From Roseateles depolymerans (GTDB taxonomy: Bacteria; Pseudomonadota; Gammaproteobacteria; Burkholderiales; Burkholderiaceae_C): DNA of 64,000 nt. How positions within the stretch are numbered: position 1 is the first letter of the stretch; every line of letters begins with the position of its first letter. The stretch lies in contig NZ_QUMT01000001.1 of assembly GCF_003387155.1 (NCBI RefSeq), positions 744,001 through 808,000 of the forward strand. Reading direction: 5' to 3'. The notes beneath the pieces were generated by a model. It saw only the letters and a program-made list of their open reading frames with translations, searched no databases and was not told the DNA's origin. Both the position numbers and the translations under genes were made by a program. Below, piece by piece: positions 8,149 to 52,125 of this stretch.

Positions 8149-10037
8149 AGCGCAATGGCCACACTGAAGTGGAATCGGTATTTGTCGGCCAGGTTGCCCT
8201 TGGCAAAGTCCATGCGCAGCACGCCCACCGGACTGCGGTAGCGCAGGCCGGTGCCCACGGCGTAGGCCGGCTTGTAGCCGCCCCAGTTCTGGGACGCCTG
8301 GCCGGCATCGATGAAGACGGCGCCCATCAGCTGCGGAATCTTGGGCGTGAGCGGGTGCGAGACTTCCACGCTGCCATCCAGCAGCACTCGGCCGCCGGTC
8401 TGGTTGCCATTGGAGTCCAGCGGGCCCAGCTCGTTGAATCCGTAGCCGCGCACGGTGTCGTCACCGCCGGTGCGAAACCGCAGCGCTTCCGGCAGGCCTA
8501 GCTTGCCCTTGGCAATGATCTGGCCCGCTTCCACCCGACTGGAGAACAGCCAGCGGCCGGGCAGCGGCGTGTACCAATAGAACTTGCCCACCGCCTTGCC
8601 GAAGGGGCCGTTGGGCTCGGTATTGCTGCTGGCCCAGCCGCCGCCAAAGACCACGCTGGCGGTCCAGCCCTTGGTGGGCAACAGCTTGGAGTCGACGCGG
8701 CGCCAGATGTTCTGCTGGTTCACCGACACCGCACCGGCCATGGTCGTCTGCACATTGGGCGCATGCTCCCAGGAGCGCAGCACTTCGATGTATTGCAGGC
8801 GGTCTTCAGGGTCGGTCTCCCGGGCATAACCGACCCGGCCCCGCAGGTTGACGTTGACCTGGTCCCCGGACTTGAGGCGCTCGGCGTAGAACGCGGCCAG
8901 GCTGCGCTGCATGTTGGGCTGCGGATGCGAGCTGATTTCGGTGTCGATGGAGCTGTTGTCCCGGCCGATGGTCAGCTTGGTGCGCTCCCGGATGTTCAGG
9001 CCGAAGGGCTTGCGGTGGGTGTGTTCGATCCCGACGGTGGGGCCGTTGACGGTGTGATAACCGACGCTGGTGGTGACCTGCTGGCGGGCCGCTTCCCGCA
9101 GCTTGGCGGTGACCGGCACCTCCACCGTTTCGACGCCGGGTTCGGGCGTCACCTGCTCGGGATTGATCTCGACACTGGCGCTGTCGAAGAGCTGGGTGCC
9201 CAGCAGGCGCTCCTGGAAGTCCAGCAGCAGCCGTTCGTTGTAGGGGTCATGCTCCTTGTAGCCGGCGAGGCGCCGCACCGCCGCTTCGGGCTGGTGCTTG
9301 AGGCCTTCGACCTTGAGCTCGCCCAGGGTGAACAGCGGGCCGGTTTCCAGCGTGACGGCCAGGTCGACCGTGTTCTCGTCGGCCAGCACGACCGCCTGGC
9401 TGTGGGTCATGCGCGCCAGCGGATAGCCCTGGGCGCGGGCGCGGGTGAGCAGGGCGTTCTTGGCGGCCGCCCAGTCGCCCTGGCTGAAGCCGGAGTGGGG
9501 CGGCAGTTGCCAGCTTTGGGTGAGGGTGCGTTCCAGCGCGGTGGCGAGTTTGTCGCCGCGCTCGGCCATGGCCCGCAGCGGACCTTCGATCCGCAGGTCC
9601 AGGCTGCCGACCAGGGCGCGCGGGCCGGTGTCCACCACCAGGCGCAGGTTGCGCACGCCGTCGCTGAGGTCGCCGACTTCCTCGGTACGGACCTTGGCAT
9701 TGAAATACCCTGCCGTTTCCAGCAGTTGCCGCGCCTGTTCGGGCGCCACTGCGGCAAGGCGGCGGAGTTCGGCCGCGGTCAGGGCCTGGTCGTCCGGCGT
9801 GTCGCGGAAGCGCGCGAGGTCCAGGTGGGTCATGAGCAGGGACCGCAGCTCCGGCGGTGCGTCCACGGTCAGCTCGTAGGCTTCGAGGCGGCGGCGGTCC
9901 ACCAGCGTGCTGCCTTCGGGCAGTTCGGTGGGCGCGGCGACCTTGAGCTCGGCCTTGTTGTCCGACCCCAGCAGGGCGCATCCGCTCAACGAAGTGACCA
10001 GGGCGGCCCCCAGGGCCAGTGCCAGCCAACGCTTCAT
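8145..10037 (-). CDS. tamA: Outer-membrane assembly factor TamA (Omp85/BamA superfamily)
   Basis: The 630-residue product has N-terminal POTRA-like domains (about residues 45-310) and a C-terminal 16-strand barrel of the Omp85 type, with the late signature GTGLRYRSPVGVLRMDFAKG. TamA sits in the outer membrane and partners TamB. The start at 10037 was chosen because MKRWLALALGAALVTSLSGC is a clean signal peptide ending in a lipobox, and because its ATG overlaps the stop of the VWA gene (ATGA). The frame is open further upstream, to 10208, but that extension lies inside the VWA gene. The lipobox Cys (residue 20) suggests a lipid-anchored N-terminus. Confidence 0.93.
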   Translation of the reverse strand: MKRWLALALGAALVTSLSGCALLGSDNKAELKVAAPTELPEGSTLVDRRRLEAYELTVDAPPELRSLLMTHLDLARFRDTPDDQALTAAELRRLAAVAPEQARQLLETAGYFNAKVRTEEVGDLSDGVRNLRLVVDTGPRALVGSLDLRIEGPLRAMAERGDKLATALERTLTQSWQLPPHSGFSQGDWAAAKNALLTRARAQGYPLARMTHSQAVVLADENTVDLAVTLETGPLFTLGELKVEGLKHQPEAAVRRLAGYKEHDPYNERLLLDFQERLLGTQLFDSASVEINPEQVTPEPGVETVEVPVTAKLREAARQQVTTSVGYHTVNGPTVGIEHTHRKPFGLNIRERTKLTIGRDNSSIDTEISSHPQPNMQRSLAAFYAERLKSGDQVNVNLRGRVGYARETDPEDRLQYIEVLRSWEHAPNVQTTMAGAVSVNQQNIWRRVDSKLLPTKGWTASVVFGGGWASSNTEPNGPFGKAVGKFYWYTPLPGRWLFSSRVEAGQIIAKGKLGLPEALRFRTGGDDTVRGYGFNELGPLDSNGNQTGGRVLLDGSVEVSHPLTPKIPQLMGAVFIDAGQASQNWGGYKPAYAVGTGLRYRSPVGVLRMDFAKGNLADKYRFHFSVAIAL

Positions 10038-11215
10038 CGGTTGAGCACGCGCATCGCCTGTTCCAGGCCACTCATGGTCAGCGGCATCATGCGCTGCTGC
10101 ATGAGCTGCTGGATCAGCGCGATGCTCTGGCGGTACTGCCACACACCCGCCGGCTCGGGATTGATCCATACGTGTTTCGGGAAGGCTTGGGTCAGCCGTT
10201 GCAGCCATTGCGCGCCGGCTTCCTCGTTGTTGTATTCCACACTGCCGCCGGGCTGCAAAATTTCGTAGGGGCTCATGGTGGCGTCACCGACGAAAATCAG
10301 CTTGTAGTCGCGGTTGTATTTGTGGATGAGATCCCAGGTGGAGGTCTTCTCGCTGAACCGGCGACGGTTGTTGCGCCACACGTGGTCGTAGACACAATTG
10401 TGGAAGTAGAAGAACTCCAGGTGCTTGAATTCGCTTTTGACCGCGGAGAACAGTTCTTCCACACGGTGCACATGCTCGTCCATCGTGCCGCCCACATCCA
10501 TGAGCAGCAATAGCTTCACCTTGTTGTGGCGCTCGGGCACCATGCGGATGTCGAGCATGCCGGCGTTGGCCGCCGTTTTGTGGATGGTGTCGTCGAGGTC
10601 CAGTTCCATGTCGGACCCCTCCCGCGCAAAGCGGCGTAGGCGGCGCAGCGCGACCTTGATGTTGCGGGTGCCGAGTTCGATCTGGTCGTCGTAATCTCTG
10701 TAGGCGCGCTGTTCCCAGACTTTGACCGCGCTGCGCTGTCCGCCCGGGCCGCCGATGCGCACGCCGCGCGGGTTGACGCCGCCATTGCCAAAAGGACTGG
10801 TGCCGCCCGTGCCAATCCAGCGGTTGCCGCCCTCGTGGCGTTCGTTCTGCTCCTGCAGGCGCTGGCGCAAGGTGTCCATCAGCTCGTCCCAGTCCATGGC
10901 CTTGAGCTGGGCCAGCTGTTCAGGCGTGAGTTCGCGCTCCAGCTGGCGGGTGAGCCAGTCCTGCGGGAGGGTGCGGGTCAGGTCGGTGATGAGCTCGACA
11001 CCCTTGAAGTAGGCGGCGAAGGCGCGGTCGAACTTGTCGAACAAAGCCTCGTCCTTGACCAGGGTGGTGCGGGACAAGGCATAAAACTTGTCCACCGTGG
11101 GGCCGCCGTCATCGTCCAGCACACCCGCGCGCAGGGCTTCGAGCAGGGTCAGGTATTCCTTGACCGAGACCGGGAGCTTGGCGGCGCGTAACGTGTAGAA
11201 GAACTGGATCAGCAT
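10034..11215 (-). CDS. VWA domain protein, CoxE-like
   Basis: The 393-residue protein starts MLIQFFYTLRAAKLPVSVKE, as in CoxE-like VWA proteins that partner MoxR ATPases. The VWA fold begins near residue 230 with LLLLMDVGGTMDEHVHRVEE, a MIDAS-type loop with Asp, Gly and Thr at the metal-binding positions. A charged central part (residues about 110-180) carries a Gly/Asn-rich segment. Family members act with MoxR AAA+ ATPases as chaperones or in metal insertion. The likely partner is moxR at 14430, three genes upstream on the same strand rather than adjacent. A strong ribosome site (AAGGGGAGG) precedes the ATG. The stop overlaps the tamA start. Confidence 0.88.
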   Translation of the reverse strand: MLIQFFYTLRAAKLPVSVKEYLTLLEALRAGVLDDDGGPTVDKFYALSRTTLVKDEALFDKFDRAFAAYFKGVELITDLTRTLPQDWLTRQLERELTPEQLAQLKAMDWDELMDTLRQRLQEQNERHEGGNRWIGTGGTSPFGNGGVNPRGVRIGGPGGQRSAVKVWEQRAYRDYDDQIELGTRNIKVALRRLRRFAREGSDMELDLDDTIHKTAANAGMLDIRMVPERHNKVKLLLLMDVGGTMDEHVHRVEELFSAVKSEFKHLEFFYFHNCVYDHVWRNNRRRFSEKTSTWDLIHKYNRDYKLIFVGDATMSPYEILQPGGSVEYNNEEAGAQWLQRLTQAFPKHVWINPEPAGVWQYRQSIALIQQLMQQRMMPLTMSGLEQAMRVLNR

Positions 11216-37117: not shown

Positions 37118-37816
<699 letters not shown>

Positions 37817-37829
37817 CCCCATCGCCCCG

Positions 37830-38495
37830 ATGCTTCGCCTGATGTGGCTGGCCTCGCCGGCGCTGCCCATCGGCGCGTTCTCCTATTCCGAGGCGCTGGA
37901 AGCGGCGGTGGAGCACGGCCTCGTGCACAACGACGTCAGTGCCGCCCATTGGCTCTCCCAGCAGCTGGCCCTGCTGGCCCGTGGGGACCTGGCGGCGATG
38001 GCGCACGCCATCCCTGCCTGGCAAGGCGGCGACGAAGCCACCCTCCGCGCCATCGCCGACTGGCTCCGCCAGACCCGCGATGGCGCAGAGTCGAGGCTGC
38101 AAAGCGAGCAGATGGGACAGTCGCTGCTGGTGTGGCTGCGGCCGCAGGGCATGGCGTCCGCGGACCAACTGGCGCTGCTGGACCGGATCGGGCCACCGCC
38201 CCACTACGCGCTGGTGATGTCCCTGGCGCTCGCCACCGTGGATGTCCCGCTGGCCCAGGCCCTGCAGGCGCAGGCCTTTGGCTGGGCCGAGAACCAGGTC
38301 CAGGCCGCCCTCAAGGCCGTGCCGCTGGGCCAGACGGCCGGTCAGCGCGTGCTGGCCCGCCTGGCCGCCGAGATCCCTGCGGCGGTGGCCACCGCCCTGG
38401 CCACGCCGCCTCATCAGCGGCAGCTGTTCGCCCCCATGCTGTCCATCCTGGCAGCCCGCCACGAAACCCAATACTCCCGACTGTTTCGATCATGA
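37830..38495 (+). CDS. ureF: Urease accessory protein UreF
   Basis: The 221-residue protein starts [20 protein letters not shown] and continues [20 protein letters not shown], with [20 protein letters not shown], the [12 protein letters not shown] helix and the [20 protein letters not shown] motif. UreF is an all-helical protein that binds UreD and UreG and controls GTP-dependent nickel insertion. The chosen ATG lies 14 bp after ureE stops. A longer upstream frame runs through the ureE His codons and would be a Thr-rich shadow. Confidence 0.95.
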
Positions 38496-41277: not shown

Positions 41278-43104
41278 TCAGTCGTTGAGGTGGGAGGGAA
41301 GCGTGGGATGAGGCGCCGCAGGCGCGAGCCGATGCAGCGTTGAAGGAAGCATCGACAGGCCCGACTGCGTCAGCGGCGCTGTTGCCAGCGGTTGCCGCTG
41401 CTCTTCCATCAGCATCTGGTGCGCGAAGCTGCGGGCCATCGCATGCATGCGGTAGCCCGGCGTATCGCCGGGGCGGGGAAACAGCCAGCTCTTGTTCACG
41501 AGGCTGTGCACCACTTCCAGCACCTGCTGCCGGTCCATGGTGGCGGGCGCCACGAAGCTGAGGATGTCGGCCAGCGCGATCGGCCCGCGGACCACCGACA
41601 GCCAGCGCAGCAGGCGCTGTTCCGGCTCACTCAGCAGGTCGTAACCCCAGCGCAGCAAGGCCTGGAGATTCTGGTGGCGGGAGATGGCATTGCGATGCGC
41701 GCCGCACAGCAGCAGGAAGCGGTCGTCCAGGCTGGCGGCCAGGGCCTTGAGGCCAAAGGTCCGGACCATGGCCGCTGCATGTTCGATGGCCAGTGGAACG
41801 CCGTCCAGGCCCTGGCAGATGTGGATGATCCATCCGGCATCGGTGTCGCACGGGTCGAAGGTCTGGTCGGCCGCCTGGGCGCGTTGCACGAACAGCTGCA
41901 CCGCCGGGGAGTGCAAGGCTTCGGCCATCGACGGCACCGGGTCACCGGGCATCGGCAGGCTGGGCAGCAGATAGACCTGCTCCCCCACGGCGCGAAGCGG
42001 CTCCCGGCTGGTCAGCAGCAGGTGCAGGCCGGGCAGGGCGGCCAGCAGGCTCTCCACCAGTTGGCCGACGGACTTCACCACGTGCTCGCAGTTGTCGAGG
42101 ATGAGCAGCCGGCGCTCGCCGACACTGGCGGCGCCCAGATGCAGGCGCAGGCGTTCGAAGAGTCCCTCGATGCTGCGGTCCAGGTCCAGCGCGCGGGCCA
42201 CGGCAAAGGCGACATCCATCGGACTGGCCAGGGCCGGCAGCGTTGCCAGGTCCACGAACCACAGGCCGTTTGGATAACGCGGGTGCAACTGACGCGCAGC
42301 GGCCAGCGCCACGCTGGTCTTGCCGATGCCGCCGGGCCCCACCAGTGTCACGAAGCCGTAACGCGAGAGCTGACGGTCCAGCGCATCGACCGTGCCTTCG
42401 CGGCCCAGCAAGGGACCGGAGGGGCGTGGCAACTGCTGAAATCCCGGTGGTGTCGGGGCCAGCGCGCCTCCTTCCTCCGCAGCGAGTGCGGACAGGGCCG
42501 CCAGACCGAGCAGCGCGCTGGAGACATCGCCGCGCGGGGCCGTGGTCCGCGCCGCGGTTGCACGGGGCAGTGCATGGGAAGACGATGCGGCAGAGGATGA
42601 GGCAGAGGCAGACAGCGAGGCAGAGGATGAGGCAGACGACGCGGTCGCCGACCCGGTCGGCGATGCGGCCGACGGAACGGCACCGGCGAAGGCGGATGCT
42701 TGGGCCCGTGGCAAGCCGGTGGCGACGGCCGCTGGCGCGCTTTCATCCAGCGGTGCCGGGGCGGTAGGCAACTCGTCCAGTGGCGGCGGCGCCACTGAGA
42801 CGGCGGGCACCACCAGGCTGTAGCCTCTTCCGGCGACGTTGGCGATGTAGCGGGCGTCGCCATCACCAGCGCCCAGGGCCTTTCGCAGCGCCGCCATGTG
42901 AACACGCAGGGTGTTGTCCTCCACCACTTCCTGGGGCCAGACCAGCGCCATCAGCTCCTGCTTGCTGACCACCTCACCGGCCCGCGCCACCAGCACCACC
43001 AGCAGGTCGAGCGCGCGTGCGCCCAGCTTCACCTGTCGCGTGCCCTCGAAGAGCTGGCGACGTGAAGCCAGAAGCAGGAAGGGACCGAAACGGTGGCAAC
43101 TCAT
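41278..43104 (-). CDS. Winged-helix regulator with NB-ARC-like ATPase domain
   Basis: The 608-residue protein has an OmpR-type winged helix (residues about 1-100; FEGTRQVKLGARALDLLVVL, VEDNTLRVHMAALRKALGAG, YIANVAGRGYSLVVP), then a Ser/Ala-rich linker of about 110 residues. An ATPase follows with Walker A GPGGIGKTSVALAAARQL, Walker B RRLLILDNCEHVVKS and LLLTSREPLRAVGEQVYLLP. This resembles SARP/LuxR-like signal-transduction ATPases that usually end in a TPR domain; no clear TPR is seen here. MSCHRFGPFLLLASRRQ at 43104 is the chosen start. It is divergent from the three tandem paralogues and may control them. Confidence 0.88.
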   Translation of the reverse strand: MSCHRFGPFLLLASRRQLFEGTRQVKLGARALDLLVVLVARAGEVVSKQELMALVWPQEVVEDNTLRVHMAALRKALGAGDGDARYIANVAGRGYSLVVPAVSVAPPPLDELPTAPAPLDESAPAAVATGLPRAQASAFAGAVPSAASPTGSATASSASSSASLSASASSSAASSSHALPRATAARTTAPRGDVSSALLGLAALSALAAEEGGALAPTPPGFQQLPRPSGPLLGREGTVDALDRQLSRYGFVTLVGPGGIGKTSVALAAARQLHPRYPNGLWFVDLATLPALASPMDVAFAVARALDLDRSIEGLFERLRLHLGAASVGERRLLILDNCEHVVKSVGQLVESLLAALPGLHLLLTSREPLRAVGEQVYLLPSLPMPGDPVPSMAEALHSPAVQLFVQRAQAADQTFDPCDTDAGWIIHICQGLDGVPLAIEHAAAMVRTFGLKALAASLDDRFLLLCGAHRNAISRHQNLQALLRWGYDLLSEPEQRLLRWLSVVRGPIALADILSFVAPATMDRQQVLEVVHSLVNKSWLFPRPGDTPGYRMHAMARSFAHQMLMEEQRQPLATAPLTQSGLSMLPSTLHRLAPAAPHPTLPSHLND

Positions 43105-43162: not shown

Positions 43163-43224
43163 AAGTCACTTCCCCGATCGAGGGTGCCCCGAAGCCGGAC
43201 GGTCGAACCTGTCCGGGCCTCACC

Positions 43225-43262
43225 GGGGACATAGCGGGTTCGGTCGCGCGTGCGGCCGGGAA
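43225..43262 (+). repeat. Conserved leader repeat, copy 1
   Basis: GGGGACATAGCG followed by a CGG TCGCGCGTGCGGCC GGGAA pattern. The same sequence stands before the second and third paralogues. It carries a TAG and ends in a GGGAA ribosome-site-like stretch, 9 bp before the first ATG. Confidence 0.8.
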
Positions 43263-43271
43263 AGAACCTGC

Positions 43272-45155
43272 ATGGTCCCATTGTTAGCATCCCGCCTGGC
43301 ACCCGGCGCCGATCCTGTAGAGATGACCCCGCTGCCGTCGTTGGCACCTTCGGAGGTCTTGGCCTACCCTTGCACGTTTGGCACGACCTCCTGCAGCGGC
43401 GGGCCGACCCTCTGGGTGGCCGACCTGGATGTGCTGATGCATCAGCTTCGGGACCCGCTTCATCGCGTCGATCTCACGCACATGGGGCTGATACTGCCCT
43501 TGCTGTCGCAAGCCGCGCCTGCCCTGGCCCCCCAGTTCCCGCTGCCCCCGATCGTGTGGTGCGCACCTGGGGACACGAATCGCGGTTCCATCGATGGCAG
43601 TGGGCCCGTTCTTCTCATCGGGCCGGCGGCGACCGAACACGGGCGGGAGCTGCATGCGGCCCTCATCATGGCGGCGGGCCCGGTACCTTGCGCATTGCCC
43701 GCGCATCTCCCTTCGGCTCAACGATTCAGATGTCCTCCGAATGACGTTTTTGACGTGGTCGTGAAAACGCTCGAGAACGTGCTGCGTTGGACGTCGCCAA
43801 GAATCGAAGGTGAACGGTCCGGAAGCGGGGCAGGGCCCGGCATGTCGCTGCGCAGGGCGTTGGCGGACTGGCTGGAGGGGACACCGTCTCGTCAGCAGAC
43901 GCGGGGCCCTTCGCCGCAGCAGTTCCCTTCGCGCCTGTCTCCCGGGACTGGCTCCACGTCGCCCGCGTGTGCGGCGGAGCCACTCGGACCGTCGTCGCCC
44001 TTGTTGTCTCCTCCTTCGTCGTCCTGTGTGCCGCCATCCATGTGGCCGTCTGCGTCGCCACGACTCGCGTTTCCGCCCTCGCCACTTCCGCTGAGTCCGC
44101 TAAGCCCGCAAACCCAGATAAGCCCGCAACTCCAGCCAAGCCCGCAAACCCAGCCAAGCCCGTTGAGCCCGCTGGCCCCGCTGAACCCGGCAAGCCCGGC
44201 AAGCCCGGTGGCAGCCTCTCCGCTGATCACCGAGACGCTCGCGCTGGCCACCCTCTTGCGAGAAGGCGGCTGGAACACCGCGCTGGAACGAGTGGCGCCG
44301 CAACTGCTGGCCAGGCTGCCGCCCTCGCACCCGCTGCGACTGGGGAAGGTGGCGATCAGGCTGGACCATGGCCAGGTGCTGGAGTTTGGTGGCGAAGAGG
44401 CCGGCAAGCCCGCCAGGCAGATTCGATGGGCCGCGGAGTTCGCCGAGGCGGAGGTGTCGCCTGCGCCCGAATCGGATGATTTCCACTACCTCGTTGGGCC
44501 TCACGCCTACCTGGCTGCCTTGCTGGGGAAACCCTTTGAAGACACTGCGGCGGCGCAAAGGGCGCGGCATCTGCTGGCGGATCTGATCGAGCGTCACACC
44601 GAGGTGGCGGCGCTGTCGCTGGCCATTTTCAAACGCTGGCCGGACCGGGATCCTGAGGTGATGCTGCGGTTCTGCCTGCATGGCGATCAATGGCGGCCTG
44701 CCGGGCGTCAATTGCTGAACGCCTCGCCGGGACTGCGCGACATGACGGCCGTGGAAATCGCGCATTGGCAGGCCCCGGCGGCCTTGCTGCAGCTCACGCA
44801 GGAGTGGATGGAACAGGAGGGCCTGTGTATTGCCGACGCGCGCTGGCATCTGTCGCCCATGGGGGTCTCCAGTCATGGCTTGAAGGCCCTCAAGCAGGCG
44901 CGCCTGGGGGTGCTGGTGATGAACAGTGCCCAGCAGACCTCGGCGTGGGAAGCGCTGGCGCAAGCGTTCCCTGAACTTCGTTATGAACTGGGGTCGCTGT
45001 ATGCGCTCGCAGCCTTCCTGCGGCAGCGGCCGGACATGGTGAGCAGGAAGGTGCCGACAGACCGGCATCTTGCGGGTTTGGCCTATCGCGAGGCGCTGAA
45101 AGCGGCGAGTGTTCTGGAAGCGCCCGAACTCAGTCGGGACCGGGCGGGGACATAG
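43272..45155 (+). CDS. Tandem paralogue 1, uncharacterised two-domain protein
   Basis: The 627-residue product is the first of three related proteins. The N-terminal domain (about residues 35-205) has LMHQLRDPLHRVDL, PPIVWCAPGD, ELHAALI, LPAHLPSAQRFRCPPNDVFD and SLRRALADWLEG. A Pro/Ser/Gln-rich linker with SPQTQ-like repeats follows (about 210-315). The C-terminal domain has LREGGWNTALERVAPQLLAR, LPPSHPLRLGKV, KRWPDRDPEVMLRFCLHGD, DARWHLSPMGV and LRYELGSLY. No signal peptide, transmembrane span or known enzyme motif is seen. I do not recognise the family. It lies beside a divergent regulator and ends with the leader repeat of paralogue 2 at its stop codon. Confidence 0.75.
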   Translation: MVPLLASRLAPGADPVEMTPLPSLAPSEVLAYPCTFGTTSCSGGPTLWVADLDVLMHQLRDPLHRVDLTHMGLILPLLSQAAPALAPQFPLPPIVWCAPGDTNRGSIDGSGPVLLIGPAATEHGRELHAALIMAAGPVPCALPAHLPSAQRFRCPPNDVFDVVVKTLENVLRWTSPRIEGERSGSGAGPGMSLRRALADWLEGTPSRQQTRGPSPQQFPSRLSPGTGSTSPACAAEPLGPSSPLLSPPSSSCVPPSMWPSASPRLAFPPSPLPLSPLSPQTQISPQLQPSPQTQPSPLSPLAPLNPASPASPVAASPLITETLALATLLREGGWNTALERVAPQLLARLPPSHPLRLGKVAIRLDHGQVLEFGGEEAGKPARQIRWAAEFAEAEVSPAPESDDFHYLVGPHAYLAALLGKPFEDTAAAQRARHLLADLIERHTEVAALSLAIFKRWPDRDPEVMLRFCLHGDQWRPAGRQLLNASPGLRDMTAVEIAHWQAPAALLQLTQEWMEQEGLCIADARWHLSPMGVSSHGLKALKQARLGVLVMNSAQQTSAWEALAQAFPELRYELGSLYALAAFLRQRPDMVSRKVPTDRHLAGLAYREALKAASVLEAPELSRDRAGT

Positions 45156-45184
45156 CGCATGCGGCTGCGCGTGCAGCCTGAAAG
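45146..45184 (+). repeat. Conserved leader repeat, copy 2
   Basis: GGGGACATAGCGCATGCGGC TGCGCGTGCAGCC, matching copies 1 and 3 at most positions. The TAG is the stop codon of paralogue 1; an AAAGGA ribosome site follows just before the ATG of paralogue 2. Confidence 0.85.
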
Positions 45185-45186
45185 GA

Positions 45187-46998
45187 ATGCGCTTGTACCC
45201 TTTGATGACTCCGATGCCGATGCACGATGACGCCGCCTCGGCGATGACCCCGCTGGCGCCGCCGCTGAGGGCCGCATCGGCCTCTCCCGATCTGCCCGAG
45301 TGGCCGGGCGGCGGCGGCCTGGCGGCGCTGGGCCGGGTCGACCGGCAGCGCCTCGCGCAGCAACTGCGCGATCCGCAGCATCGTTTTGAGATGGAGGACA
45401 ACGCGGCACTGGCGTGGCTGTTCCAGACGGCCGCGCCTGCGTTGCCCTCCTGGCGGGACTGGCCCGCAGTGCGCTGGTGCACGCCGGATCAAACGATGCA
45501 AACGCCCGACTCGCATCCCGGCCCCTATCTGCTGGTGGCGCCGGTCTGGACGGATGGCGGGTGGGAGCTTCATTCCACATTGGCTTCGGACCTCCATCCC
45601 GAACAGACGGCGCTCCCCGCGCACGTGCCGGTGTGCAACAAGTTCCGATGCCCGCCGCACGACCTCCTGGACGTCGTGGTGCAGACGATCGAGAACGCGC
45701 GCCCGAGGAAGATTCCCGGCTGCGGCCTCGCGCCGCAGGGGGGCGGGGCAGCGCCCGGTTCGGCCCTGCGCCGTGAACTGGCGCAATGGCTGGACACCGC
45801 CGACGAAGAGGCGATGATGTCGGCGCCTTCTTCGCTCCGGATGCCGGGGTTCCCGCAACGCGCCCTCGGCAGCCCGCTCCATGCGGTGGCGCTCCTGAAG
45901 CGGCCGTTGGCGGCTGTATCGCCGCCGGCGTCTCCAGAACCTGCAGCGTCCATAGCGCCCGCAGCACTTCCAGCACCCTCAGCACCTGCCGCGCTTTCCG
46001 CGCCTGCCTCCCAGTCGATCCCCTCGATTCCGACGTCGCTCCACCTCCGTGTACTCGCGCTCGCCGAGCAATTGAGGCAAGGGCTATGGAATGATGTCCT
46101 CGGCCGTGTGGCGCCGATGTTGATGGCCCGGCTTCCTTCGACGCATCCGCTTCGTTTGGGGAAGGTCGACATCACCTTCGGCGATGGTCGGCGCCTGCGC
46201 ACCCAGATCGGTGAGCAGGGCCAGCCCCGAGAAGTGATTTGTGATCCACAAGGTCTCTTCGTCAAGGTCACAAGCCGAGCCAGCACGGTGCCACCGGCCA
46301 TGTTTGCAGGTTCGGACGCGCTGCTCAATGCCTTGATCTTTGGGCGGTACTCTTCGCCGGCGATGGCGGCCGGGGCCCGGCAACTGCTGGCCGATCGGAT
46401 CGAAAAACAGCCCCTGCTCCCAGCGTTGATCCTGGCCATTCTGGATCGCTGGCCCGAGCGCAACCCCGAGCTGATGCTGCGGTTCTGCCTGCATGGCAAG
46501 ACCTTGCAACCGGCTGCCCAGCAGCTGCTGGGTATCGCGGCGCCGGCGCGAGACCTGACGGTCGAGGAGGTGAGGCAATGGCAGCATCAAAGGCCCGACA
46601 TGCATTGGAGCCAGGATCAGATGCTCCGTGAGGGCATCAGTGTGGCGGATTACCGCTGGCATTTCTCGCCGCTGGGGCTGTCGGGGAACGGGGTGCAACT
46701 GCTTCAGCAACATGGCTTCACGCCCACGCTCCCGCGCGCGAAAAGGTCCAAGGACGTTCCCGGTGTCGAGCAATTGAAGGACGCTCTTCCGAGCCTGCGC
46801 TATGAGTTCGGAACGATGGATGAGCTCGCAAAGTACCTGCGGCTGTCCGTTGCCATGCTGAAGGGCTATGTTGGGAGCGACCTACTCGACGCCGTCGAAG
46901 CCTACCGCTATCGAATGACGTGGGAAGAATGCGAGGACTCGCCGGTCGCGCAGATGCAGGGGAGATCCGAACTCGGTGGGGGCCCGGTGGGGACATAG
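45187..46998 (+). CDS. Tandem paralogue 2, uncharacterised two-domain protein
   Basis: The 603-residue protein has the same plan: N-terminal domain (LAQQLRDPQHRFEMED, WPAVRWCTPDQ, GPYLLVAPVWTDGGWELHST, LPAHVPVCNKFRCPPHDLLD, ALRRELAQWLDT). A Pro/Ala-rich linker of about 90 residues follows, then the C-terminal domain (LRQGLWNDVLGRVAPMLMAR, LPSTHPLRLGKVDITFGDGR, DRWPERNPELMLRFCLHGK, DYRWHFSPLGLSGNGVQLLQ, LRYEFGTMDELAKYLRLS). Start MRLYPLMTPMPMHDDAAS shares MHDDAAS-like text with paralogue 3. AAAGGA precedes the ATG. Function unknown. Confidence 0.75.
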   Translation: MRLYPLMTPMPMHDDAASAMTPLAPPLRAASASPDLPEWPGGGGLAALGRVDRQRLAQQLRDPQHRFEMEDNAALAWLFQTAAPALPSWRDWPAVRWCTPDQTMQTPDSHPGPYLLVAPVWTDGGWELHSTLASDLHPEQTALPAHVPVCNKFRCPPHDLLDVVVQTIENARPRKIPGCGLAPQGGGAAPGSALRRELAQWLDTADEEAMMSAPSSLRMPGFPQRALGSPLHAVALLKRPLAAVSPPASPEPAASIAPAALPAPSAPAALSAPASQSIPSIPTSLHLRVLALAEQLRQGLWNDVLGRVAPMLMARLPSTHPLRLGKVDITFGDGRRLRTQIGEQGQPREVICDPQGLFVKVTSRASTVPPAMFAGSDALLNALIFGRYSSPAMAAGARQLLADRIEKQPLLPALILAILDRWPERNPELMLRFCLHGKTLQPAAQQLLGIAAPARDLTVEEVRQWQHQRPDMHWSQDQMLREGISVADYRWHFSPLGLSGNGVQLLQQHGFTPTLPRAKRSKDVPGVEQLKDALPSLRYEFGTMDELAKYLRLSVAMLKGYVGSDLLDAVEAYRYRMTWEECEDSPVAQMQGRSELGGGPVGT

Positions 46999-47026
46999 CG
47001 CAGTCGGCTGCGCGTGCGGCCGGGAA
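46989..47026 (+). repeat. Conserved leader repeat, copy 3
   Basis: GGGGACATAGCGCAGTCGGC TGCGCGTGCGGCCGGGAA, closest to copies 1 and 2 in turn. The TAG is the stop codon of paralogue 2. The paralogue 3 ATG lies 10 bp after it. Confidence 0.85.
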
Positions 47027-47036
47027 GGACTCTGCC

Positions 47037-48809
47037 ATGTACCTCATGTCCACCGGGCGGCCGATGCACGATGAAGCTGTCGTTGCGGCCAGCCCTTCTG
47101 CCTTGGAACTGGCGACGGGCGATGGCGCCGCGGGTGCGTGGCGGGTCGAGCCGGGCGGCAGCATCGCGGAACGCTTGACGCCCGCCGAACGCGATCAACT
47201 CGTTTGGCTGCTCCGGGACCCGCAGCACCGCTTTCCGGTGGACCAGGGCGCTGCGCTGGTGTCGCTGATCGGGGCGGCCCTGCCAGCGTTGCGATCCTGG
47301 ATCGATTGGCCGGCCACTGTGTGGTGTGCGCCGGGTCAGCCGATTCCGGGGCCTGTAGACCCGTCCTCGCTTTATCTGCTGGTGACGGCGGTCCGCAGGG
47401 ACACCGGGTGGGAACTGCACACCGCCCTCACCGGGGACCTGCGGCCGGATCAGGTGGCGATTCCCGCGCACGGGCGGGCCGACAACCAGTTTCGCTGCCC
47501 ACCGAATGACCTCCTGGATGCCCTGGCCCTGACGCTGGAGAACGAGCTGGCGCAGCCGGTCTCCGTGTTGCGGCTGCGACAGATCCTCGCGGATTGGCTC
47601 GAGAGCGGGCCCGTTGAGGAGAGGCCGCTTTCCCCACCGCAACGGGGGGGCCACTTGGCGCCGCAACCGGGGCTGCAACCGACGCCGCACGATCGGACGC
47701 CGCCGCAGCCCGGTCCTCGCGGCAGTCACGCCGCGCTGTCGGCCTGGCTGCAGGCGCGGGGCCACACTGCTGCAGGGCCGTCATCGTCCAGGCGGGCCTC
47801 CGAACTGAATGACGCGATCCCGGTGGCGCTGAGAAGCAGGACGCAAGCGCTCGCCCAAGCGCTCAGACAGGGACAGTGGCACGAGGTCCTGGACCGCATG
47901 GCGCCGCAGTTGCTGGCCCGACTGCCGCCGTCGCACCCCTGTCGCCTGGGCGCTGTTGACGTGACTCTGGGCGATGGAACCCCCCTGTGCCTCAATCCCG
48001 CAAAGGAGGTGACAGGGTGGCGGGTGCACTGTGCACCGGGCATGGCCCTTATCGTCGTACCGCCCTTCCTTGGCAACCTGGCCCAGCAGACCTTCCAGGG
48101 GCCGGACGGCTATCTGCAGGCCCTGATGCAGGGAGACAGCGGGGGTGCAGTCAGCGGCACCGAGGTCCGACACCTGCTGGCCGACCTCATTGAAAGCCAT
48201 CCCACCGTCTCCGCGCTGATGCTGGCGATCTTTGATCGCTGGCCGGAGCGTGACCCCGAGGTGATGCTGAGGTTTTGTCTGCACGGCGACACCTTGCAAC
48301 GAGCCGGCCTTCAGCTCCTCGATCCCTCCCGCCCGGCGCGTGACCTGTCCCCGTCTGAGCTGTGGGACTGGCAGAGAAAACCCATCAGAACGCGCCTGGA
48401 CGAAACCCCGATCGTGCGTGCAGGCATCAGTCTGGCGGACGTGCGGTGGCATTGCTCGCCGCTGCGCCTGTCCCGGTACGGCGTCGAGGCGCTCGTGCCC
48501 CCTTTGAGCTTCATCGCGCCCCACTGGAAGGAGCAGATCGCCGGTGTCAAGCTGCTGAAGCAGTCCTTCCCGCAGCTGCGTTATGAATTGGGGTCGATGT
48601 ATCAGCTCTGCATGTATCTGCAGCTGACGCCTGAGGAGCTGATGAAAAACATCGATGCCAAGCTGTCCGACCGCGCGACTGACTACTGCGAGCGGATGAC
48701 GCGGCAGGGCGTGCTGCTTCCCTCCCTTCCGAGCGCGGGCCTTCAGCCGTTGCCATCCTCCAGCCCCGTGACGGAACCGCCAGACACGGACCAGGGCCAG
48801 CCTTCATAG
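47037..48809 (+). CDS. Tandem paralogue 3, uncharacterised two-domain protein
   Basis: The 590-residue protein starts MYLMSTGRPMHDEAVVAASP and repeats the plan: LVWLLRDPQHRFPVDQG, WPATVWCAPGQ, GWELHTALTGDLRPDQVAIP, AHGRADNQFRCPPNDLLDAL, RQILADWLES, a shorter Pro/Arg-rich linker. The C-terminal domain has LRQGQWHEVLDRMAPQLLAR, LPPSHPCRLGAVDVTLGDG, DRWPERDPEVMLRFCLHGD, DVRWHCSPLRLSRYGVEAL and LRYELGSMY. It is closer to paralogue 2 at the N-terminus. Its 3' end overlaps the convergent propeller gene by 67 bp. Function unknown. Confidence 0.75.
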   Translation: MYLMSTGRPMHDEAVVAASPSALELATGDGAAGAWRVEPGGSIAERLTPAERDQLVWLLRDPQHRFPVDQGAALVSLIGAALPALRSWIDWPATVWCAPGQPIPGPVDPSSLYLLVTAVRRDTGWELHTALTGDLRPDQVAIPAHGRADNQFRCPPNDLLDALALTLENELAQPVSVLRLRQILADWLESGPVEERPLSPPQRGGHLAPQPGLQPTPHDRTPPQPGPRGSHAALSAWLQARGHTAAGPSSSRRASELNDAIPVALRSRTQALAQALRQGQWHEVLDRMAPQLLARLPPSHPCRLGAVDVTLGDGTPLCLNPAKEVTGWRVHCAPGMALIVVPPFLGNLAQQTFQGPDGYLQALMQGDSGGAVSGTEVRHLLADLIESHPTVSALMLAIFDRWPERDPEVMLRFCLHGDTLQRAGLQLLDPSRPARDLSPSELWDWQRKPIRTRLDETPIVRAGISLADVRWHCSPLRLSRYGVEALVPPLSFIAPHWKEQIAGVKLLKQSFPQLRYELGSMYQLCMYLQLTPEELMKNIDAKLSDRATDYCERMTRQGVLLPSLPSAGLQPLPSSSPVTEPPDTDQGQPS

Positions 48810-51800
48810 CCGTAAAGACGCAAGGCCGGCACACAGAGCGACAGGCTGAACGAGGCACCGTCGGCATTGCGGCGTGAATGAACCGTGCGGATCCATCCGC
48901 CGAGAGCGCGGGCGCGCTGCTCGAGGGAGTCCTGCGCGGTGGTGTCCCGTTCGGCGGTTGCGGTGAGCCCCTCGGGGGACGCCGCGGCCGCACCCTGCTG
49001 ATCGGCGGTCACCACCAGGCGCAGGCCCCACCAACGCCAGATGAGCCGCGCCCGCACGGCCCCGGTGCGGGTGCCCGTGCCGGTACCGGTCACCCGCGCA
49101 AAGGCCTGTGCCAGCATGGCGTTGCCCAGCGCCTGCAATGCGGCCTTTGCATGGGGACGCAAAGGCCGTGAGGCGCCTTCGACCTCCATCAGGAAGTCGA
49201 TCTTCTGCTCGGCGGCCCGCCGCTCGCCCAGCCTGGACCAGATCACCGCCACATCCTGCTGCTCAAGGCGCTGCGTATTGCGCAGGGCGCTGACCTGTTC
49301 CCGGCCCTGCAGGATCAGCTCATCCGCCCGGTTCAGCGCAGCTTCCATCAGAGGATGGTTCGGGTCTTCCGACCGCATCCGGTTCGCCACTTTCTGGAAG
49401 TGCAGCGTGAGCCCGTGCAGCCCCTGCAGCAGCGTGTCGTTGAGCTGCTGCGCGAGCTGCTCGCGTTCGTCCATGCGAATGCGCAGCCGGTCATGCTCGC
49501 GCCGCGCCAGCAGGCCCAGGCGCCAGCGCAGCACGGACGCCAGCAGCGCAGTCCCCGCCAACGCCAACAGCACCCGCATCCACAGCCTTTGCAGGAGGGT
49601 GGGCTGGAGGATGAAGCGCAGGGTTGCGGGGTGGGGCGAAGGCGGACCGTCGGCCAGCGAGGCCCGGACCTGCAGTTCGTGGCGGCCCGGTGGCAGGTGG
49701 CTGTAGGACAGGTCTCGCTGGCTGCCCAGCGGGCGCCAGTCGGTGTCCACCCCCATCAGGCGCGCCTCGAAGCGCACCCGCTCGGGGGCCCCCAGCGCCA
49801 GCGCGGTGAATCGTACCGAGACGGTCTGGGTCCCGGCAGGCAGCTCCAGATCGTCCCGGGCGTCCTGCCAGCGCTGGTCCGCCGCCACCGCCAGCCATTG
49901 CACCTCGGGGCCGGGCCTGGCAGCGGGCAGGCGATCCAGGTCCAGGGCCGCGATGCCCTCCAGCCCGGCGAACCAGAGCCGACCCGGTCCGCTGGCGACC
50001 ACGCTGGCCTGCGGGCCCAGGGCCATGGCGGCGGCCGGGTAGCCGTCGCCGCTGTCGAAGACCTGCAGGGCCACTTCAGTCTGCGGGTCCGCGACCCACC
50101 GGCTCAGCGCATCGGCCGGCACACGGACCGCCCCGCGAACGCCGTTGAGCCAGAGGTCGCCCGCCGGCGTTTCCGTGGCGCCGGTGATGCCCCGCAGCGC
50201 TTCCGGCTGGGTGGACCGCAGGCTGCGGAAACGCCCCTGATGCAGCATCTGCAGGCCGCGGTCGCCGCCCACCAGCACGTATCGGCCGCTGTAGACATAG
50301 TTCACCGCGCCGACGGCCAGGCCTTGCCGGCTGTCATACAGCTGCGCGCCCTGCTCGTCATGGCGCATCAGGCGGTTGTTGGCATACCCGGTCCACACCG
50401 CCGTTGCGCCTTCCAGGGCAAAGGCGGTTGGCCGCTCGTCCTGCAGTCCGGGGAAGGGCAGCGTCTGCCAGGCGCCGTCCCGGAGCAGTTGCAGGCCCAC
50501 CGATGGGAACAGCGCCCACAAGCCCTGCCGATTGCTGAGCAGCTGGGTGCAGGAGGGCGCTGTCGATGCCGCAGCGGGAGGCGCGACGGGGCGTGCCTGG
50601 GCGCCCCGGAGCTGCCACAGTCCTGTCGTGCTGCCCACCCATTCACGTCCTTCCCCGTCCCGATGCAAGGCGCGGATGCGTCCGCGGTCGCGGGACCATT
50701 CGAGGGGGCTGAAGCCCTGATGTTCATTCCACCGCCACAGCAGGCTGCCATGCTCGGCATCCACGGCGGACAGCAGCAGGTGTTGCCGCAAGGGGCCGCC
50801 GGGGTCCACCACGCGGTAGGACTGGAGCAGGAAGTTGGTGGCAGCGCTGGAGGGGGTGAAGCGGGCCAGCAGCGTGTCCCGAAAACGGTCGAGTCCGGAC
50901 TGGGTGGCCACCCACAGGTTCCCCTCGCGGTCTTCGAGGGCGGTCATGCCGATGTCGCTGGTGAGGCCGTCGCGGCGGGTCCAGGATTCGGTGACCGGCG
51001 GCAGGTGCAGCGGGCGCCGGGCGGTGGTCCAGTCGACCGGCAACTGCGTGCGACAGAGGCCCGCGGGGCAGTAGGCGCTCCAGACATTGGCCTGATCGTC
51101 GATCCAGAGGGCGGAGGAGTCGGGTTGACGGACGGCAGGGCCGCTGGGCCGTTCGCTGCCGGGCAGTGGATGCAGTCCGTCTGCGGTGACCACCCAGCTG
51201 ATGCCCCCAACGATGCGGATGGCCCGCCCCGCAGCGAGCCCGCGGACCCTTTCGACAAACTGTTGCCGCTCCGGGTCCAGCCTCCACCATCGATCGTCGG
51301 AGGCCAACCATAAGGCCCCGTTGGCGTCGGTGTGCAGCCCGGCGGGGGGTGTGGCGGGTGCCTGGAAAGAGGCGTCCGGATGACGCCACAGGCCTCCCTC
51401 GAAGACCAGCAGTTGCCCGGACACCACCGCCCAGGTCTGGCCACTCGCCGAGGTCGCCAGCTTGGTGGTCTGGAAGCTGGGGAGATCCGCAGGCAGGGGA
51501 TAGACGGTCAGGTGCCCGCGCGGGTCGATGCGGGCAATGCCGCCGTCCAGCAGGCCGACCCACAGGTCTCCGTTGCTCGCGGCGGCCAGGGTGCTCACGG
51601 GACGGGCGCCGAACTCCGGATCTTCTGCGGCGACGAACTGCTCAAAGCGGACGCCGTCGAAGCGGTACAGGCCGGAGGTGCTGCCCAGCCAGAGCCAGCC
51701 GTCGGCGGTCTGGCTGATCTTGCGGATGCCGATGGGGGCGCCGTCGTTGGCGGTCCAGCGGCTGTGGTGCAGTTGCTCGAAGCTGCGATGCCGGTCCAGG

Positions 51801-51871
51801 GCGTAGGCGGGGAGGGTGCCCAGCCCCAGGACCAGAAACAGGACCAGGCGCAGGAACCTACCCAGCACCAT
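48743..51871 (-). CDS. Beta-propeller sensor with degenerate histidine kinase core
   Basis: The 1042-residue protein has a signal/anchor (VLGRFLRLVLFLVLGLGTLP). Two seven-bladed propellers of the two-component-regulator type follow (repeats such as ISQTADGWLWLGSTSGLYRF and ALEDREGNLWVATQSGLDRF), then a Y_Y_Y-like domain (about 735-790), a membrane helix (MRVLLALAGTALLASVLRW) and a HisKA_3-like segment. In that segment the phospho-acceptor His is replaced by Asn811 (REQLAQQLNDTLLQGLHGLT). The following ATPase region lacks clear G boxes. It is thus a sensor that probably cannot autophosphorylate. No response regulator is adjacent. The start at 51871 is chosen before the signal segment. Confidence 0.85.
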   Translation of the reverse strand: MVLGRFLRLVLFLVLGLGTLPAYALDRHRSFEQLHHSRWTANDGAPIGIRKISQTADGWLWLGSTSGLYRFDGVRFEQFVAAEDPEFGARPVSTLAAASNGDLWVGLLDGGIARIDPRGHLTVYPLPADLPSFQTTKLATSASGQTWAVVSGQLLVFEGGLWRHPDASFQAPATPPAGLHTDANGALWLASDDRWWRLDPERQQFVERVRGLAAGRAIRIVGGISWVVTADGLHPLPGSERPSGPAVRQPDSSALWIDDQANVWSAYCPAGLCRTQLPVDWTTARRPLHLPPVTESWTRRDGLTSDIGMTALEDREGNLWVATQSGLDRFRDTLLARFTPSSAATNFLLQSYRVVDPGGPLRQHLLLSAVDAEHGSLLWRWNEHQGFSPLEWSRDRGRIRALHRDGEGREWVGSTTGLWQLRGAQARPVAPPAAASTAPSCTQLLSNRQGLWALFPSVGLQLLRDGAWQTLPFPGLQDERPTAFALEGATAVWTGYANNRLMRHDEQGAQLYDSRQGLAVGAVNYVYSGRYVLVGGDRGLQMLHQGRFRSLRSTQPEALRGITGATETPAGDLWLNGVRGAVRVPADALSRWVADPQTEVALQVFDSGDGYPAAAMALGPQASVVASGPGRLWFAGLEGIAALDLDRLPAARPGPEVQWLAVAADQRWQDARDDLELPAGTQTVSVRFTALALGAPERVRFEARLMGVDTDWRPLGSQRDLSYSHLPPGRHELQVRASLADGPPSPHPATLRFILQPTLLQRLWMRVLLALAGTALLASVLRWRLGLLARREHDRLRIRMDEREQLAQQLNDTLLQGLHGLTLHFQKVANRMRSEDPNHPLMEAALNRADELILQGREQVSALRNTQRLEQQDVAVIWSRLGERRAAEQKIDFLMEVEGASRPLRPHAKAALQALGNAMLAQAFARVTGTGTGTRTGAVRARLIWRWWGLRLVVTADQQGAAAASPEGLTATAERDTTAQDSLEQRARALGGWIRTVHSRRNADGASFSLSLCVPALRLYGYEGWPWSVSGGSVTGLEDGNG

Positions 51872-52125
51872 GCCTATCCTTGTGCCCAGGAGAACGCCCG
51901 AGGAGGGGCCAAGCGATGGGCACAAAGACATCCTCAGGGATGGGCCGACCCTCAGCCACACCCAGGCCGTTCGAGGAAATGGAGCACTCAAGGCGACGAC
52001 CAGTGGAGGGGGAGGCGGAAGGACTGCGCAGTGGATCTGCATCTTCGCCCTGGGCACCGCCGGGCGTCACTTCCCCATTCGAGGCATGCTGGCTGACAAC
52101 TGCAGCCCGGTTGCCACGCCGTGTG

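What the first reader, a model, noticed from the sequence alone, without database searches (positions are those of the whole stretch)
43272..48809. Three tandem paralogues of an unrecognised two-domain family
Three consecutive genes (627, 603 and 590 residues) share two conserved domains: an N-terminal one with LRDPQHRF, VWCAPG and FRCPPNDLLD, and a C-terminal one with RWPERDPEVMLRFCLHG, RWHxSP and LRYELGS. Variable Pro/Ser/Ala-rich linkers join them. They lie beside a divergent regulator with an ATPase domain. I cannot tie either domain to a known family, and there is no signal peptide, membrane helix or enzyme motif. Recent local expansion beside a dedicated regulator suggests a responsive or secreted system, such as effectors or antagonistic proteins; that part is inference.
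Basis: partly seen in the sequence, partly recalled or inferred. Interest (0 to 1): 0.8.

Follow-up and report, generated by a model that had tools for sequence, protein, structure and literature searches.

The report
Fast-evolving orphan protein family in Roseateles
Three neighbouring genes belong to a protein family found so far only in some Roseateles-type bacteria; the genes change fast, share a private control signal, and seem to carry a protein-cutting-enzyme-like fold without the usual cutting residue, which hints at a purpose-built system for binding some unknown target.

Summary
Three genes (627, 603 or 601, and 590 aa) have the two domains described and no convincing match in Pfam, NCBIfam, PHROGs, PADLOC or PDB sequences. 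The expansion is not recent: paralogues are 38-43% identical. The family occurs in 5 of 16 genomes of the genus (Roseateles) and was found in no other genus sampled.

New findings:
(1) All five N-domain genes of the own genome start with one leader, which occurs exactly five times in 5.66 Mb: three times here and twice before genes that join the N-domain to an OmpR-type DNA-binding domain.
(2) Its core, GAAC-N18/19-GACAKAG, precedes 11 of 17 family genes, in all five genomes; other sites are at background level.
(3) dN is 3-6 times that of the neighbouring regulator and propeller sensor; the sensor's kinase H-box lacks histidine.
(4) The C-domain model is confident (pLDDT 87.6). Its weak best neighbours are papain-like folds (PopP2, Lem17; OTU and SENP with the full-length model). 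The presumed catalytic cysteine is absent in 14 of 15 members.

Best reading: a dedicated, diversifying set of binding (pseudo-enzyme) proteins, perhaps exported. The hybrids keep an intracellular regulatory role nearly as likely.

The parts
43272..45155 (+). family gene 1, 627 aa
45187..46998 (+). family gene 2, 603 aa (601 aa if it starts at TTG 45193, which fits the leader spacing)
47037..48809 (+). family gene 3, 590 aa; its 3' end overlaps the convergent sensor gene by 67 bp
43205..43271 (+). private leader of gene 1: GAAC-N19-GACATAG, possible hairpin GGUCGC-GCGU-GCGGCC, ribosome-site region
45126..45192 (+). private leader of gene 2; overlaps the end of gene 1; possible hairpin GGCUGC-GCGU-GCAGCC
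46969..47036 (+). private leader of gene 3; overlaps the end of gene 2; possible hairpin GGCUGC-GCGU-GCGGCC
43410..43904 (+). N-domain of gene 1
45328..45822 (+). N-domain of gene 2
47175..47624 (+). N-domain of gene 3; ordered part is residues 42-192 of the model
44214..45125 (+). C-domain of gene 1; presumed cysteine slot is Ala
46030..46944 (+). C-domain of gene 2, modelled alone (pLDDT 87.6, pTM 0.87); slot residue 97 is Ala
47820..48725 (+). C-domain of gene 3; slot residue 358 is Gly; invariant Arg378 and Cys414
41278..43104 (-). divergent regulator: OmpR-type winged helix plus AAA/STAND-like ATPase with P-loop-like GPGGIGKTS
43163..43174 (.). AAGTCACTTCCC, box in the divergent intergenic region, found beside the regulator in all five family-bearing genomes
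48743..52057 (-). sensor: Reg_prop propeller, Y_Y_Y, weak HisKA_3; H-box histidine replaced by Asn, ATP-binding G1 box lost (by eye)

Best explanation
The locus is a self-contained module of one Roseateles lineage. A propeller sensor (48743-52057) and a winged-helix/ATPase regulator (41278-43104), both slowly evolving, sit with a variable number (1 to 9) of fast-diversifying proteins. In the own genome these are expressed from a private promoter/leader found before no other gene. Each protein has a disordered Pro/Ser/Ala-rich tail, an N-domain of about 150 residues, a disordered linker and a C-domain of about 305 residues. The C-domain starts with a papain-like (CE/OTU/YopJ-type) core of about 140 residues and ends with a helical half that holds many of the invariant residues. 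In the window copies the presumed catalytic cysteine is Ala or Gly, so they most likely act by binding, not by cutting or transferring. Sequence change is fastest in the N-terminal tails, as expected if they meet a changing partner. I judge it slightly more likely that the partner lies in another cell and the proteins are exported than that they work inside the bacterium. Shown: family limits within the genomes searched, copy number, leader exclusivity, rate contrast, confident C-domain model, residues at the slot. Inferred: that the neighbouring regulator and sensor drive the promoter, the papain-like homology, the position of the slot, the binding role, the export.
Confidence: 0.4

Rival explanations
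1. The proteins are intracellular signalling or gene-control partners. The N-domain is a sensing or pairing module, the C-domain a binding output, and in two paralogues the output is an OmpR-type DNA-binding domain. The set diversifies to recognise different internal signals.
For: Two genes at G000:C6 (L020:7863-9077 and 9980-11122) have the same N-domain and leader, with Trans_reg_C E 2.3e-15 and 3.2e-15. No hydrophobic stretch suited to a membrane helix in the window proteins. The regulator beside the array is itself a winged-helix protein.
Against: The hybrids occur in 1 of 5 family-bearing genomes. Their DNA-binding part has dN/dS 1.25 over 94 codons, odd for a working regulator. Copy number runs from 1 to 9.
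Confidence: 0.35
2. Type III-injected YopJ/OTU-like effectors with ordinary enzymatic activity.
For: The closest structural rows are such effectors or deubiquitinase-like enzymes. T3SS secretin over cut-off in 15 of 16 genus genomes. The G011 member, on a deep, long branch, has Cys in the slot.
Against: 14 of 15 members lack the cysteine. No sequence-family match. The secretin is over cut-off in 10 of 11 genus genomes without the family. The promoter motif is absent from 155 kb around four T3SS loci.
Confidence: 0.12
3. Relics or selfish tandem repeats under weak constraint.
For: High dN/dS; N-terminal tails 0.69-1.55; a duplicated stretch beside a tRNA-Ser.
Against: No internal stop in 15 N+C copies or 2 hybrids; dN/dS 0.43-0.81 in the N- and C-domains; the leader is more conserved than the first 600 coding bases (66-88% against 49-74% DNA identity in ten pairs).
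Confidence: 0.08

Closest known systems
PopP2 (YopJ family, CE clan) and Lem17, injected effectors
   Different: No sequence match; the slot is Ala, Gly, Ser, Asn or His in 14 of 15; the C-terminal helical half is not covered; secretion untested. That Lem17 is YopJ-like is my reading, not from a call.
EschOTU-type permuted OTU deubiquitinase (6w9s)
   Different: Poor rmsd; no Pfam OTU match; cysteine absent in the window copies; G011 has Gly, not Asn or an acidic residue, two after the His.
OmpR/PhoB-type winged-helix regulators
   Same: Output domain of the two C6 hybrids (Trans_reg_C).
   Different: The fused N-domain has no Pfam match; the window copies have no DNA-binding domain by Pfam.
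Reg_prop/Y_Y_Y hybrid sensor kinases
   Same: Reg_prop and Y_Y_Y over Pfam cut-off.
   Different: HisKA_3 below cut-off; H-box His is Asn in 5 of 5; G1 box lost in 3 of 5 (by eye).

Membership tests
OTU deubiquitinases | match to the sequence family | tested here: not met
   no OTU hit for the three proteins (E up to 1), 15 N-domains (E up to 10) or 14 C-domain rows (E up to 10); HMMER's filters drop most weak matches
OTU deubiquitinases | catalytic cysteine | tested here: not met
   slot residue Ala 7, Ser 4, Gly 1, Asn 1, His 1, Cys 1 of 15 members; slot placed by motif and model, not by superposition
OTU deubiquitinases | fold | tested here: inconclusive
YopJ-family acetyltransferase effectors | match to the sequence family | tested here: not met
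   no such Pfam hit; no PDB sequence hit for the C-domain profile at E up to 10
YopJ-family acetyltransferase effectors | fold of the catalytic core | tested here: inconclusive
YopJ-family acetyltransferase effectors | delivery by a type III system | not testable with these tools
   secretin over cut-off in 15 of 16 genus genomes; delivery needs an experiment
Type III regulon of this genus | promoter shared with T3SS genes | tested here: not met
   0 sites of GAAC-N17-19-GACAKAG in 155 kb round four secretin loci of G000 and G001; 1 with a looser pattern
OmpR/PhoB winged-helix regulators (C6 hybrids only) | Trans_reg_C domain | tested here: met
   E 2.3e-15 and 3.2e-15, over cut-off
Known anti-phage defence proteins | PADLOC model match | tested here: not met
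   0 families for P0001-P0003 at E up to 0.1
Histidine kinases (neighbouring sensor) | phospho-accepting histidine | tested here: not met
   Asn at the H-box position in 5 of 5 genomes; HisKA_3 E 0.018, below cut-off

The most novel reading that the evidence does not exclude
Probability: 0.25. Interest if true: 0.8.

Novelty: new variant of a known kind. Interest (0 to 1): 0.6.

Why it matters
It is an orphan family with confidently predicted domains, a dedicated cis-signal that can be tested with a simple reporter, and natural variation in copy number from 1 to 9. If the C-domain is a dead papain-like fold, it offers a bacterial case of enzyme-to-binder conversion, with one cysteine-bearing relative for comparison. 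The hybrids show one domain placed on two different outputs.

Tried and rejected
Known-family filing: Pfam, NCBIfam, PHROGs, PADLOC and PDB sequences gave nothing convincing. STAT_int (E 0.018, gene 3), linaridin_rel (E 0.16, gene 1) and PDB lactate dehydrogenase (E 0.35) are below any useful threshold.

Mobile carriage: no match in 72,556 plasmid records (P0003) or 50,697 phage records (P0002); the other paralogues were not tried there.

Wider spread: P0003 alone matched 4 of 60 genomes, all in the genus and one of them the own genome. A1 on 399 family-level genomes: only G000 and G001 matched, 3 candidates scored per genome. C-domain on 399 order-level genomes: only G000 matched, 5 scored per genome. 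Distant relatives may have been missed. Genome contigs with P0003: none; with A2: two loci, both already held as G001 and G008. Metagenome and viral-contig collections were not searched.

Internal N/C duplication: element orders look alike, but hhalign gave probability 0.5% and E 0.12 over 18 columns.

Relatives at the site in family-lacking genomes: weak fam1 hits (E 0.03-0.5) in 7 of 8. In the 6 with a containing ORF, that ORF ends in a CorC/HlyC-like transporter (my recognition), on the strand opposite to the hit; G007 had no containing ORF. Rejected as chance.

Hairpin covariation: 35 of 36 cells paired, but 238 of 500 shuffles do as well, so only a lead.

The Cys in G011 alone could be chance: gene 1 has 9 Cys in 627 residues, and 15 members were looked at.

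Regulator distribution: two searches failed on the machine. Regulator and sensor were checked only at the syntenic site, not elsewhere in family-lacking genomes.

Fold searches: viral library no match below E 0.37; Foldseek PDB none significant. No OTU row is among those shown for the C-domain model and no YopJ-family row among those shown for the full-length model. VIA rows barely cover the C-terminal helical half, so nothing is said about its fold.

Literature: searches naming Roseateles or Mitsuaria showed nothing on this family in the listings and abstract starts seen; one search was too broad to be useful. PMC7396840 and PMC10318531 were seen only as passages; the latter mentions catalytically inactive papain-like domains, so a dead one has precedent. 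Searches were seen as listings. Subscription papers are not held.

Full report
WHAT IS THERE. The three frames are as described. Gene 2 probably starts at TTG 45193, because the start codons then fall at nearly the same distance from the leader in all copies. No member gave a convincing match in the libraries searched. The window lies in G000, C1:744001-808000. I therefore call the genus Roseateles.

DISTRIBUTION. With the 13-sequence profile, 5 of 16 genus genomes have the family: G000 5 genes, G001 9, G008 1, G012 1, G011 1. A search with the N-domain alone finds the same 17 proteins in the same 5 genomes. Of 399 genomes drawn from the taxonomic family only G000 and G001 matched, and of 399 from the order only G000 matched with the C-domain; only 3 and 5 candidates per genome were scored in those two searches. 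Plasmid and phage collections gave nothing.

TWO ARCHITECTURES. Fifteen proteins are N-domain plus C-domain. Two, close together at G000:C6 (L020:7863-9077 and 9980-11122), carry the same N-domain followed by an OmpR-type winged helix (Trans_reg_C, E 2.3e-15 and 3.2e-15). They lie directly after a tRNA-Ser(TGA) gene (L020:7693-7782). A 37-nt stretch just behind the tRNA gene is repeated at 89% identity before the second hybrid.

PRIVATE LEADER. All five genes in the own genome start with the same leader of 65-68 nt. The pattern GGGACATAGCGNNNNNGGNNGCNCGTGC, allowing 3 mismatches, occurs exactly 5 times in 5.66 Mb, once before each N-domain gene and nowhere else; the reversed control pattern gives 0. 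Between paralogues the leader is 66-88% identical, against 49-74% for the first 600 coding bases (ten pairs). Its upstream half, GAAC-N18/19-GACAKAG, is also found before the G008, G012 and G011 genes and before three of nine G001 copies. The G011 site was not used to define it. Over 16 genomes the pattern has 32 sites: 11 before family genes and 21 elsewhere, against 39 for the reversed control. In the own genome 5 of its 8 sites are the family leaders; I did not examine the other 3. The six other G001 copies lack an exact site. The pattern with spacing 17-19 is absent from 155 kb around four T3SS secretin loci of G000 and G001; one of two looser versions has one site there. The downstream half can form a 6-bp hairpin in 35 of 36 cells, with one two-sided change. 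Slid controls pair 28-50%, but shuffles do as well as the real alignment (238 of 500), so this is only a lead.

NEIGHBOURS. In all five family-bearing genomes the array sits with the winged-helix/ATPase regulator, the Reg_prop sensor, a GNAT gene and a PQQ-type dehydrogenase near tctA. In the eight other genomes whose tctA site was read (20 kb each), none of these genes was found. Three further genus genomes without the family (G006, G014, G015) had only distant tctA matches (at most 68%) and were not read. In G001 the regulator lies inside the array. tctA identity to the own genome is 90-93% in the four other positives and 86-88% in the eight negatives, so the positives may be one clade, and this all-or-none pattern may be a single event. 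The sensor's H-box has Asn for His in all five, and the ATP-binding G1 box is gone in three of five (by eye), so ordinary phosphotransfer is unlikely. Against G008, G001 and G012, the family's dN (0.56, 0.79, 0.95) is 3-6 times that of the regulator (0.10, 0.15, 0.15) and the sensor (0.16, 0.21, 0.29). dN/dS is 0.46-0.62 for the family, 0.19-0.29 for the regulator and 0.22-0.35 for the sensor (these two with G011 as well), and 0.08 for tctA in one pair (the family comparison mixes paralogues). Within the family, dN/dS is 0.43-0.58 in the N-domain and 0.44-0.81 in the first half of the C-domain, 0.38-0.98 in linkers and 0.69-1.55 in N-terminal tails; the winged helix of the hybrids is 1.25 over 94 codons (six pairs).

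ACTIVE-SITE SLOT. In the gene 2 model a helix begins at residue 97, inside the segment G-x-D-x-h-L-x-A, where papain-like enzymes of this order carry the catalytic cysteine (recalled; the reversed His-aromatic-Asn...Cys order of EschOTU is described in PMC7396840, passages). The slot is Ala in 7, Ser in 4, Gly, Asn and His in 1 each, and Cys in 1 of 15 members. The Cys is in G011, whose branch is the deepest when the N-domain tree is rooted at the midpoint, but is long and of unsure place. It also has His-Tyr, with the His 39 residues before the Cys. An Arg 20 residues after the slot in gene 3 (Arg378) is invariant in the members aligned, and so is Cys414 in the helical half. I read the window copies as pseudo-enzymes, with the caution that one Cys in 15 could be chance and that the slot was not placed by superposition.

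MECHANISM. The best-supported chain is: cue, then sensor and regulator, then private promoter, then a set of diversifying binding proteins. The last step splits. Export to a changing partner in another cell fits the rate pattern, the disordered tails, the structural neighbours and the T3SS secretin over cut-off in 15 of 16 genomes. Against it, the secretin is about 100 kb away in four of five positive genomes and about 600 kb away on the same contig in G011, shares no promoter motif in G000 and G001, and is over cut-off in 10 of 11 genomes without the family. An internal regulatory role fits the winged-helix hybrids. I put 0.4 and 0.35 on these.

RATING. The family is new to every library searched; papers were searched for it only. 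The kind, a lineage-specific fast-evolving array with dedicated control, is known, so I call it a new variant. Interest 0.6.

Noticed in passing
L020:7693-11122 (G000:C6): Two N-domain/winged-helix hybrids sit directly behind tRNA-Ser(TGA), with a stretch behind the tRNA repeated before the second copy and an IstB-like remnant between them (recognised by eye).
   Followed up: partly
L075-L082: In all 8 family-lacking genomes whose tctA site was read, a tRNA-Ser(TGA) lies 2-11 kb from tctA; none is in the stretches read round tctA in the five family-bearing genomes. The family may mark a rearrangement or insertion point.
   Followed up: partly
window 48743-52057 and its counterparts in four genomes: A Reg_prop/Y_Y_Y sensor whose H-box histidine is Asn in all five genomes and whose ATP-binding box is lost in three of five: a silent histidine kinase kept at 61-76% identity.
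   Followed up: partly
G000:C1:685507-687165 and C1:1505732-1507276: Two type III secretin loci in the own genome; 15 of 16 genus genomes have a secretin over the cut-off.
   Followed up: partly
L020:9074-9601: A 175-aa minus-strand reading frame between the two hybrids, not identified.
   Followed up: no
window 37563-38495: Low-complexity Thr/Met-rich stretch at the start of a ureF-like frame (recognised by eye), of different make-up in relatives.
   Followed up: no
C-domain helical half, e.g. window gene 3 residues 401-486: Two similar helix-hairpin-helix motifs with an invariant Cys, Gln, Arg and Trp in and between them; possible internal repeat or ligand site.
   Followed up: no
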